A stretch of 64,000 nt of DNA from an uncultured Flavobacteriaceae bacterium (GTDB lineage Bacteria; Bacteroidota; Bacteroidia; Flavobacteriales; Flavobacteriaceae). How positions within the stretch are numbered: the stretch's first letter is position 1; each line of letters opens with the position of its first letter. The notes beneath the pieces are model-generated. The model had not been told where the DNA came from and did not search any database. It was given only the letters and a program-made list of their open reading frames with translations. A program made the translations under genes and the position numbers. The stretch covers positions 225,237-289,236 of the forward strand of contig CANLXN010000006.1 of assembly GCA_947495135.1 (NCBI GenBank). Reading direction: 5' to 3'. Of the stretch, positions 5,220-25,285 are shown piece after piece.

Positions 5220-5327
5220 AATTGTAGTTACAAGGTCTTAACCGTGATAAGCGAAAATACAAATTCCGCTTTAAACATTTTACCGCTCCTCGATAAATTA
5301 ACTTATTTGAAGTTTGAAGATAGTACC

Positions 5328-5458
5328 GCATTAGGGATTGCAGCGGCATCCTTTTTACCGATCTCTGAGCGGAGTCGAAGAGAGCTGGAAAAAGATACAG
5401 CGAAAAGCCCGGTCTTTTTGTATGCTGGTGCAACGAGCATACAAAAAGGAATGCCCCA
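5328..5458 (+). repeat. Structured intergenic element, copy A
   Basis: GCATT at 5328-5332 can pair with AATGC at 5450-5454. Immediately inside lie AGGGATTG (5333-5340) and GAAAAGCCCGG (5402-5412). Two hairpins fill the loop: an extended arm with CATCCTTTTT against AAAAAGATAC (5347-5397), and a perfect 13-bp stem CTTTTTGTATGCT/AGCATACAAAAAG (5414-5426/5436-5448). The first arm contains CTGAGCGGAGTCGAAG, which I have seen as a common flavobacterial intergenic motif. Copy B at 21030-21120 shares the framework with a compensatory base-pair change. It may be a structured RNA, a REP-like element or a terminator; its strand of action is not settled. Confidence 0.6.
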
Positions 5459-21193: not shown

Positions 21194-21259
21194 CTTTTAC
21201 ACCAACCTCTGGCGAGAGACGCGAATGTTGCTGTAAACTAAATTAGAAAATCAATAAAG
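21194..21259 (+). promoter_or_regulatory. Structured 5' leader of rplS, candidate L19 autoregulatory leader
   Basis: TTTACA (21196-21201) pairs with TGTAAA (21232-21237), then CAAC (21203-21206) with GTTG (21227-21230) across a C-C mismatch. A CTCT-GGCG-AGAG hairpin (21207-21218) sits inside, with ACGCGAAT unpaired on the 3' side. Ribosomal-protein leaders upstream of L19 have been described computationally in Flavobacteria, and this position and fold are compatible. Feedback by L19 is inferred. Confidence 0.65.
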
Positions 21260-21610
21260 ATGGAAGCGTTAGTAAAATTTGTTCAAGACGAATTTGTAAC
21301 AAAAAAAGATTTCCCTGAGTTTGGAGCTGGAGACACTATTACAGTGTACTACGAAATCCGTGAAGGTGAAAAAACAAGAACTCAGTTTTTTAGAGGAGTT
21401 GTTATTCAAGTAAAAGGAACTGGATTAACCAAAACTTTTACAATTAGAAAAATGTCTGGTACTGTAGGTGTAGAGCGTATCTTCCCAATAAACTTACCAG
21501 CATTACAGAAAGTTGAAGTGAATAAAAGAGGTGCGGTTCGTAGAAAGCGTATCTACTACTTTAGAGGTCTTACTGGTAAAAAAGCCAGAATCAAAGAAAA
21601 AAGACACTAG
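21260..21610 (+). CDS. rplS: 50S ribosomal protein L19
   Basis: Protein of 116 aa, the normal size, located at the 30S-50S interface of the ribosome. Signature blocks are PEFGAGDTITVYYEIREG, GVVIQVKGTGLTKTFTIRK and GVERIFPINLPALQKVEV, and the basic tail ends LTGKKARIKEKRH. It has its own promoter, a folded leader and a strong terminator, so it is an independent unit rather than part of a trmD operon. Confidence 0.98.
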   Translation: MEALVKFVQDEFVTKKDFPEFGAGDTITVYYEIREGEKTRTQFFRGVVIQVKGTGLTKTFTIRKMSGTVGVERIFPINLPALQKVEVNKRGAVRRKRIYYFRGLTGKKARIKEKRH

Positions 21611-21630: not shown

Positions 21631-21660
21631 AAAGGCGATCCAAATGGATCGCCTTTTTTA
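21631..21660 (+). terminator. Terminator after rplS
   Basis: Perfect stem AAAGGCGATCC/GGATCGCCTTT with an AAAT loop, running into Ts, starting 20 bases after the stop codon. Confidence 0.92.
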
Positions 21661-21691
21661 TTGACAATTGTTAATAACCTAGGTTCATAAG

Positions 21692-21720
21692 TTGTTAATA
21701 CTAAATGCATTATAAATTTG
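21692..21720 (+). promoter_or_regulatory. Promoter of the candidate non-coding RNA
   Basis: TTG at 21692-21694, 18-bp spacer and TAAATTTG at 21713-21720, matching the flavobacterial consensus. The next annotated ORF starts more than 420 bases downstream, beyond a terminator. Confidence 0.65.
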
Positions 21721-21726
21721 GCAAAC

Positions 21727-22054
21727 ACCTTCTTCTTCTTGTATATTTATACCATCAAAGTGAGACAATCATTGAGATAATAAAGTAACGTTCTTTATTT
21801 AGCTTTCTGGACTTGTTTGAAATAGCAGCGACTTTAGAGTTGTAACTACTAGAGAAAAGGAAGTTGGAAATGTGATTTACAGAATACAGATTGGTTAACG
21901 TCAATAAGTTCGAATAAAACACATTCCATTGAAACAAATCACGATCGCAGGTATATAATAAACTTGCAGTATTCTGCCCGAGGCAGTTGATCGGTAACGA
22001 TGTGTTTCACAAGAAGCCATAGTATTACGTTTACGTAGTGTTATGGCTTTTCTT
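21727..22054 (+). ncRNA. Candidate structured non-coding RNA (~330 nt)
   Basis: The segment is bounded by a consensus promoter and a strong hairpin terminator and has no credible ORF. The ends pair: CTTCTTGT (21735-21742) with ACAAGAAG (22009-22016). Stacked on this is a long imperfect helix: GAAACA/TGTTTC (21931-21936/22003-22008), ATC/GAT, then CGATC/GATCG (21942-21946/21989-21993), capped by CTGCC-CGA-GGCAG (21974-21986). A 5' hairpin ATAAAG/CTTTAT lies at 21780-21798. The conserved blocks of RNase P RNA and tmRNA are absent. A 6S-like RNA or a lineage-specific RNA is possible; the identity is unresolved. Confidence 0.6.
22014..22054 (+). terminator. Terminator of the candidate non-coding RNA
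   Basis: AAGCCATA (22014-22021) pairs with TATGGCTT (22042-22049); the stem continues inward through ACG/CGT with several G-T pairs and is followed by TTTTCTT. Its 5' arm overlaps the 3' strand of the closing helix of the RNA. Confidence 0.75.
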
Positions 22055-22142
22055 GCGTTTTGAAGACAACACGGGCTAAAATCATTATTAATTGACGTTC
22101 ATTTTGTTTATATTGTAACTAAATAAAATGAATTAATTTTTT

Positions 22143-22847
22143 ATGATACGAATTCTCTTCTCCGTAATTACCTGTCTTTCTACATTTGCTGTATTTGGAC
22201 AAGGCTATGAGGCTTATGTCAAACTTCAGGTTAGACAAATTGAAATTAATCAAATCACAGAATCGTTTGGATTAACCGATGAGCAATTTCAAAAATTACA
22301 GGGATCACCATACGCCAACGAAGAATTTGCTCCAGGATCTGTTTTTAAAGAAAACGAGCTAGCCACCAAAAATGTCCAACTGAGATATAATATCTATTCG
22401 GATGAAATGGAGGTTCAAAATAGAGCTACACCCAATTCTATTGGGGCATTAAAGAAAGAAGAAGATCTTTTTGTTAAAATTGGTTTTCAATTATACACAT
22501 ATGTTCCGTTTGAAGGGTCTGTTGAAAAAGGACACTACTTCAACATAGTTTCCAGCCAGAAAGAGTTTAGTCTATACAAAAAAACAGAGGCTCGATTTGT
22601 TCCTCCTAAAGCTGCAAAAACATCTTATCAGACCCAAAAACCGGCAAGATTTACTGAAAAAAACACTTACTACCTCGTTTCTCAAGACGAACGATTTTAC
22701 GAGTTACCTCCTAAAAAATCAAAAATTATTGATGTAATGAGCGTTAGAGAGAAAGAGATCAAAGCATACATAAAAAGGAGCAGATTAGATTTAAGCGATG
22801 AGAAAGATCTAGTAAAATTGGTGACTTACTACAATTCAATTTTATAA
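22143..22847 (+). CDS. Secreted protein of unknown function
   Basis: Protein of 234 aa with a signal peptide (MIRILFSVITCLSTFAVFGQ) and no lipobox. I recognise no family. The mature part starts GYEAYVKLQVRQIEINQIT and is mixed alpha/beta, rich in Lys and Glu, with a basic middle (residues ~150-200) and a helical C-terminus. No catalytic motif is apparent. It likely functions in the periplasm or outside the cell. It lies between the candidate ncRNA and icd and is separated from both by control signals, so it is probably transcribed alone. Confidence 0.7.
   Translation: MIRILFSVITCLSTFAVFGQGYEAYVKLQVRQIEINQITESFGLTDEQFQKLQGSPYANEEFAPGSVFKENELATKNVQLRYNIYSDEMEVQNRATPNSIGALKKEEDLFVKIGFQLYTYVPFEGSVEKGHYFNIVSSQKEFSLYKKTEARFVPPKAAKTSYQTQKPARFTEKNTYYLVSQDERFYELPPKKSKIIDVMSVREKEIKAYIKRSRLDLSDEKDLVKLVTYYNSIL

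Positions 22848-23032: not shown

Positions 23033-25285
<2,253 letters not shown>

What the first reader, a model, noticed from the sequence alone, without database searches (positions are those of the whole stretch)
21727..22054. Candidate novel structured non-coding RNA between rplS and the next gene
A 330-nt stretch without an ORF has its own consensus promoter (21692-21720) and a long terminator. Its ends pair (CTTCTTGT/ACAAGAAG). A compound helix runs GAAACA/TGTTTC, ATC/GAT, CGATC/GATCG and is capped by CTGCC/GGCAG. RNase P and tmRNA core motifs are absent. It is the best candidate in the window for an undescribed RNA.
Basis: partly seen in the sequence, partly recalled or inferred. Interest (0 to 1): 0.75.

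Follow-up and report, generated by a model that had tools for sequence, protein, structure and literature searches.

The report
New structured RNA family in Flavobacteriaceae
Just after a ribosomal-protein gene in flavobacteria lies a stretch of about 300 bases whose folded shape is kept across related genera by matched base changes and which matches no family in the Rfam catalogue; it likely makes a working RNA, predicted to act as the core of an RNA-protein particle.

Summary
After rplS lies a conserved structured RNA gene without an Rfam match. A model of its 3' part matches 157 of 397 sampled family genomes. All 40 further hits that I fetched lie beside rplS or the isocitrate dehydrogenase gene, as do 118 of 118 contigs found by a terminator pattern. 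In 31 aligned relatives, 68 pairs in 10 helices form standard pairs in 92.5% of cells, with 222 two-sided compensatory cells against at most 71 in 200 tree-based simulations. G-U cells outnumber A-C cells 173 to 35, which points to the + strand. RNase P, 6S and tmRNA genes lie elsewhere. Two details were wrong: relatives share a promoter-like TTG-N19-TAnnTT(T/A) about 30 bases downstream, so the RNA likely starts near 21754; and the end pairing CTTCTTGT/ACAAGAAG is not conserved. A palindromic, operator-like array lies upstream in 64 of 72 loci. Two genomes of Flavobacterium type lack the RNA. Expression and function are untested. My best guess is a trans-acting RNA-protein particle.

The parts
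21631..21660 (+). hairpin and T-run after rplS, likely the rplS terminator, which would separate rplS from the RNA
   Evidence: Read by eye; the scan did not list it.
21658..21677 (.). palindromic operator-like element TTATTGACAATTGTTAATAA (consensus TTATNAACAATTGTTNATAA)
   Evidence: Within 3 mismatches in 64 of 72 loci; its 16-base core has one exact match in the whole genome.
21682..21700 (+). two further boxes of the same kind: GGTTCATAA (21682-21690) and TGTTAATA (21693-21700)
   Evidence: at most 1 mismatch to the box in 66 of 72 (third box) and 59 of 72 (fourth box).
21718..21749 (+). promoter-like site shared with relatives: TTG (21718-21720) and TATATTTA (21742-21749); spacer 21 here, 19 in relatives
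   Evidence: That this is the Bacteroidetes type of promoter is recalled, not tested.
21754..22060 (+). structured RNA, predicted transcript (start inferred from the shared promoter box, end from the terminator)
   Evidence: transcription itself untested
21754..21778 (+). helix H1, 5' hairpin; doubled in L003 and tripled in L006 by eye
   Evidence: 89.4% of cells paired, all 4 pairs covary; in the window only 3 of the 4 pairs have letters; copies seen
21780..21798 (+). helix H2, ATAAAG-TAACGTT-CTTTAT, the most sequence-conserved hairpin
   Evidence: 96.2% paired; 3 of 6 pairs never vary
21804..21862 (+). helix H3, long stem with internal loop TTGTTTGA; an added stem of this kind lies in L010, L039 and L040
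   Evidence: 91.3% and 84.7%; in the window two of its ten pairs are G-A and A-A
21890..21905 (+). helix H4
   Evidence: 79.0%, the weakest helix; all 6 pairs covary
   Evidence: 87.7% and 98.7% in A3
21947..21967 (+). hairpin P6 inside P5, GCAGG/CTTGC, with loop motif TAATAA
   Evidence: 97.4%, 4 of 5 pairs covary
   Evidence: 92.7% for the consensus register; two of its four consensus pairs are T-T in the window
22010..22055 (+). terminator hairpin CAAGAAGCCAT...ATGGCTTTTCTTG
   Evidence: 98.0%

Best explanation
This is a structured RNA whose helices are kept by compensatory base changes across genera of Flavobacteriaceae, and it is predicted to be transcribed from its own promoter and to act in trans, likely as the core of a stable RNA-protein particle. 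Shown by the calls: covarying helices that fit the + strand, a fixed place after rplS, a shared promoter-like box, an upstream palindromic array, a conserved terminator hairpin, and no Rfam match. Inferred: transcription from about 21754 to 22060; control by an unidentified DNA-binding protein at the palindromic array; binding of proteins to the conserved internal loops and to hairpin H2, so that the folded RNA rather than a short antisense seed does the work.
For: Ten covarying helices beyond a tree-based null, with G-U well above A-C on the + strand. 157 of 397 family genomes; 40 of 40 fetched further hits and 118 of 118 pattern-found contigs lie by rplS or the dehydrogenase gene. Promoter-like box at fixed spacing 19 in 32 of 37 relatives. 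Promoter-like TAnnTT(T/A)G in the last 190 bases before the dehydrogenase gene in 52 of 72 loci, which fits separate transcription of that gene. RNase P, 6S-Flavo and tmRNA are elsewhere. Growth by whole added stems in relatives (by eye) fits a scaffold of binding modules.
Against: No expression data. No protein partner is known. The RNA is missing at this locus in 10 of 20 family genomes without a model hit and in two Flavobacterium-type genomes, so it is not essential to the family. Hairpin H2 shows no excess of near-copies elsewhere in the genome (21 against 34 for the reversed control). Conserved loops could equally be antisense seeds. The window's own promoter spacer is 21, not 19.
Confidence: 0.6

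Rival explanations
1. It is a base-pairing regulatory sRNA: a conserved loop pairs with mRNAs, and the rest of the fold protects it.
For: Loops such as TAATAA in P6 and ACGTT in H2 are among the most conserved letters. The flavobacterial sRNA Rfp18 of F. psychrophilum is reported to affect protease mRNAs and to have a strong predicted fold (PMC9723704, passages).
Against: Most conservation is of paired, covarying parts. Target prediction was not run. Rfp18's locus is not given in the passages that I saw, and two Flavobacterium-type genomes have no such RNA after rplS, so nothing links the two.
Confidence: 0.22
2. It acts in cis: a leader of the dehydrogenase gene or a 3' element of rplS.
For: The dehydrogenase gene lies downstream in the fetched stretch of 63 of the 72 loci (counted). 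A structured element after an r-protein gene, L17DE, is known in Firmicutes (PMC7247131, passage).
Against: Hairpins with T-runs both before and after the RNA, a promoter-like box for the RNA and one before the dehydrogenase gene in 52 of 72 loci. In L049 and L050 the next gene is another one (by eye), and in the window and L021 an ORF lies between.
Confidence: 0.1
3. The locus is mainly DNA: a replication origin or a DnaA-binding site, with the RNA secondary to it.
For: dnaA lies about 10-23 kb upstream on the same strand in 16 of 21 genomes looked at. The boxes TTATNAACA differ by one letter from the E. coli DnaA box TTATNCACA (recalled), and some relatives have TTATTCACA.
Against: No skew switch at the locus in three genomes; in two chromosomes sampled more widely the changes of sign seem to lie elsewhere, though the skew is noisy. 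No TGTTNATAA in 700 bases upstream of dnaA in five genomes. In five of 21 genomes dnaA is far or on the other strand. It would not explain covarying helices.
Confidence: 0.05
4. It is not an RNA gene: a spacer, or a small protein gene.
For: No expression evidence. A 60-codon TTG frame lies on the minus strand at 21755-21937, and minus-strand stop-free stretches reach 107 codons in relatives.
Against: Compensatory changes beyond all of 200 tree-based simulations, an excess of G-U over A-C that fits the + strand, and added stems and length changes between relatives.
Confidence: 0.03

Closest known systems
raiA motif RNA / ModT
   Same: A structured RNA reported to act in trans, with possible protein association (PMC11706538, abstract and outline)
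   Different: Bacillota and Actinomycetota by that abstract; no Rfam match here. Works like, not a member.
OLE RNA
   Same: A structured RNA in an RNA-protein complex (PMC10898510 and PMC11332333, search listings)
   Different: Gram-positive extremophiles by those abstracts; no Rfam match here. Works like, not a member.
GOLLD and ROOL RNAs
   Same: Large structured RNAs of unknown function (PMC12286853, passages)
   Different: Found in phages and prophages by that passage; this one has a fixed chromosomal place. No Rfam match.
6S-Flavo, RNase P and tmRNA
   Same: Single-gene structured RNAs of the same genome
   Different: Found at other places in this genome
L19-Flavobacteria leader (RF03130)
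   Same: Same neighbourhood: rplS
   Different: A 28-base leader before rplS (21203-21230); the new RNA lies after rplS
L17DE motif
   Same: An RNA element after an r-protein gene (PMC7247131, passage)
   Different: Firmicutes, after the L17 gene; no Rfam match here
Rfp18 sRNA of Flavobacterium psychrophilum
   Same: A flavobacterial RNA with a strong predicted fold (PMC9723704, passages)
   Different: Its locus was not seen; two Flavobacterium-type genomes have no RNA of this kind after rplS

Membership tests
Any Rfam 15 family | Score at or above the family's gathering cut-off | tested here: not met
   Searches (window; 20 relatives' loci): only the L19 leader near by, and Flavo-1 elsewhere in the window; 22 matches at E up to 10, each below its cut-off.
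RNase P RNA (type A) | Match to RF00010 | tested here: not met
   The genome's only match is at C1:525452-525762.
6S-Flavo RNA | Match to RF01685 | tested here: not met
   The genome's only match is at C13:96185-96292.
tmRNA | Match to RF00023 with a tRNA-like part | tested here: not met
   The only match over the cut-off is at C10:145955-146354; no tRNA or tmRNA gene in the window.
SRP RNA | Match to an SRP RNA family | tested here: not met
   No SRP family matches in the window; the whole genome was not searched for it.
Structured RNA kept by selection on its fold | Compensatory changes beyond a phylogenetic null | tested here: met
   R-scape itself was not available.
Independently transcribed RNA gene | Own promoter and terminator, and a transcript | tested here: inconclusive
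   Promoter-like box and terminator hairpin conserved; no transcript data.
Large RNA-protein particles of the OLE or ModT kind (works like) | A stable complex with protein, action in trans | not testable with these tools
   Inference only
Base-pairing sRNA (works like) | A conserved seed complementary to mRNAs | not tested
   No target prediction was run.
Rfp18 sRNA | Sequence and locus of Rfp18 | not testable with these tools

The most novel reading that the evidence does not exclude
A further housekeeping-like large RNA of Flavobacteriaceae, beside RNase P, tmRNA, 6S and SRP RNA: the core of an undescribed RNA-protein machine, built of stems that can be doubled, with its own palindromic operator, and missing from the Flavobacterium lineage in which a main flavobacterial transcriptome map was made.
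Probability: 0.35. Interest if true: 0.87.

Novelty: new variant of a known kind. Interest (0 to 1): 0.7.

Why it matters
A structured RNA present in many genera of one large bacterial family, among them Zobellia, Maribacter, Arenibacter, Eudoraea and Muriicola (record names), has no entry in Rfam 15. If it is expressed, a whole family carries an RNA machine that nobody is looking for. Its fixed locus, its operator-like array and its natural absence in Flavobacterium-type genomes make the question testable by deletion and by transfer into a natural null.

Tried and rejected
Origin of replication: not kept as the main reading. The locus is often near dnaA and has DnaA-box-like repeats, but the skew does not switch there, seems to switch elsewhere in two chromosomes sampled at 40 and 20 places, and the array is not in front of dnaA in five genomes. 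The skew is noisy, so this evidence is weak.

Shared hairpin as a decoy site: 21 near-matches of the H2 15-mer in the genome, one of them exact, against 34 for the reversed control; no support. The operator core has 4 matches with up to 2 mismatches, one exact (here), against 8 for its control.

Rfam near-misses (rpsL_ricks, frnS, RefA9, MicX and others): each below its cut-off; most cover the hairpin after rplS.

Promoter and terminator scans: no excess over shuffles (5 promoter-like sites against 6.5; 1 terminator-like against 1.0), so I rely on conservation.

Flavobacterium: I first took the listing (80 loci shown of 118) to hold no Flavobacterium; one search shows two of the 118 titled Flavobacterium sp. 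(L183, L199). The L19 of L199 is only 72% identical to chain 7jil_P and L183 has no rplS in its stretch, so these names do not show that true Flavobacterium has the RNA. Chain 7jil_P is recalled as Flavobacterium johnsoniae. L357 and L358, 96% and 95% identical to it, lack the RNA after rplS.

Literature: eight searches showed no paper on an RNA after rplS in these bacteria. Those with rplS as a required term returned no paper. Supplements were not readable and PMC5737381 is not held, so novelty in print is only as good as these searches.

Full report
WHAT IS THERE. The window comes from a genome of 4.29 Mb in 45 contigs. It is of Flavobacteriaceae: contigs of two genomes of its own genus (G003, G004) have the same lengths as named records of Flavobacteriaceae bacteria (L148, L126). 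The stretch 21727-22054 lies after rplS (21260-21610). In the window a 234-aa ORF without a Pfam match (22143-22847) follows, then the monomeric isocitrate dehydrogenase gene (23057-25285). In relatives the dehydrogenase gene usually comes next.

IT IS CONSERVED. blastn with the region matches 12 of 99 genomes, the window's own included; one of the 12 (L012) is not at this locus. A covariance model of the 3' module, made from ten sequences, matches 157 of 397 family genomes at E up to 0.01, the window's own and others used for the model included. Of the hits without a locus I fetched 40: 38 have rplS and the other two the dehydrogenase gene in the stretch. At least three of the weakest hits (G206, G385, G400) lie away from rplS when compared, so not each weak hit is real.

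IT REACHES FURTHER THAN THE MODEL. In 20 family genomes without a model hit (the first 20 listed), rplS was found in 20. Eight have both a GTTCTT motif and a GCCAT...TGGC hairpin after it by script, L266 and perhaps L280 a variant by eye, ten nothing. Of 12 genomes taken for likeness of L19 to another protein, eight have operator, GTTCTT and hairpin and four do not. Of 25 genomes of other families of the order, one (L298) has both motifs, but in the wrong order. Such simple motifs can miss diverged forms. On these samples the RNA is confined to this family.

IT IS STRUCTURED. From 38 non-redundant loci (eight repeats of the same genomes dropped, and L026 without rplS) I aligned, without structure, 37 for the 3' module (A2; L043 dropped because my locator failed) and 31 for the full length (A3; L003, L006, L008, L037, L043, L047 and L048 left out for added stems, a diverged 5' half or, L008, as a near-duplicate). 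The consensus of the 3' module pairs in 94.7%, with 26 of 42 pairs showing two-sided changes. The full length has 68 pairs in 10 helices, 92.5% paired, 45 pairs with two-sided changes. In some searches the structure came from the same alignments, which favours it. G-U cells outnumber A-C cells (100 to 14, 61 to 14, 173 to 35), as expected if the + strand is the RNA.

WHERE IT STARTS. Thirty-two of 37 relatives have TTG, 19 bases and TAnnTT(T/A), followed by a few bases and the start of the conserved part; L009 has it by eye; L041, L043, L047 and L048 lack the TTG. In the window this is TTG 21718-21720 and TATATTTA 21742-21749, 21 bases apart.

WHAT MAY CONTROL IT (inference). Upstream lies TTATNAACAATTGTTNATAA, within 3 mismatches in 64 of 72 loci, followed by two like boxes. 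Such a match occurs at 10 of 1,089,176 positions in stretches of three genomes, their own RNA loci included. The exact 16-base core occurs once in the genome. The binding protein is unknown; DnaA is only a lead.

WHAT IT IS NOT. RNase P, 6S-Flavo and tmRNA lie elsewhere. No Rfam family reaches its cut-off on it. SRP RNA was not sought in the whole genome. No + strand frame is evident (longest ATG frame 12 aa in the window, at most 72 stop-free codons in 38 loci); minus-strand stop-free stretches reach 107 codons, which I take for chance in AT-rich sequence.

NATURAL ABSENCE. Two genomes whose L19 is 96% and 95% identical to PDB chain 7jil_P (recalled as Flavobacterium johnsoniae) have rplS and the dehydrogenase gene 278 and 277 bases apart, with no motif of this RNA, and are not among the model hits. 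That may be why the transcriptome map of F. psychrophilum, which names SRP RNA, RNase P, tmRNA, 6S and 85 new RNAs (PMC9723704, passages), need not contain it; its supplements were not readable.

ADDED STEMS (by eye). H1 is doubled in L003 and tripled in L006. A stem like H3 is added in L010, L039 and L040. L055 holds what looks like two copies of most of the RNA in tandem. Growth by whole stems fits a scaffold of binding modules; this is inference.

VERDICT. Conserved, structured and without a catalogue entry: that much is shown. That it is transcribed is very likely but untested; I put the RNA gene itself at about 0.95.

Noticed in passing
window 5326-5418: Flavo-1 RNA (RF01705), just over its cut-off (44.2 against 42 bits).
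   Followed up: no
window 21203-21230: L19-Flavobacteria leader before rplS (RF03130); also in 19 of 20 relatives' loci given.
   Followed up: partly
window 22143-22847: A 234-aa ORF without a Pfam match between the RNA and the dehydrogenase gene; similar genes by eye in the same place in L021 and L051.
   Followed up: partly
window start; dnaA ends at the window's start; dnaA lies about 10-23 kb upstream of the RNA on the same strand in 16 of 21 genomes, yet the skew does not mark this place as an origin.
   Followed up: partly
L275, L279, L283: Where the RNA is missing, rplS is followed here by an unrelated kind of isocitrate dehydrogenase gene (PF00180) instead of the monomeric kind (PF03971): the neighbourhood is kept although the enzyme differs.
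   Followed up: partly
L055: What looks like a tandem copy of most of the RNA (by eye).
   Followed up: no
L056, L060: Longer versions with many added GNRA-looped hairpins (by eye).
   Followed up: no
window 21729-21740: TTC repeats in the promoter spacer of this species, which may explain its longer spacer.
   Followed up: no
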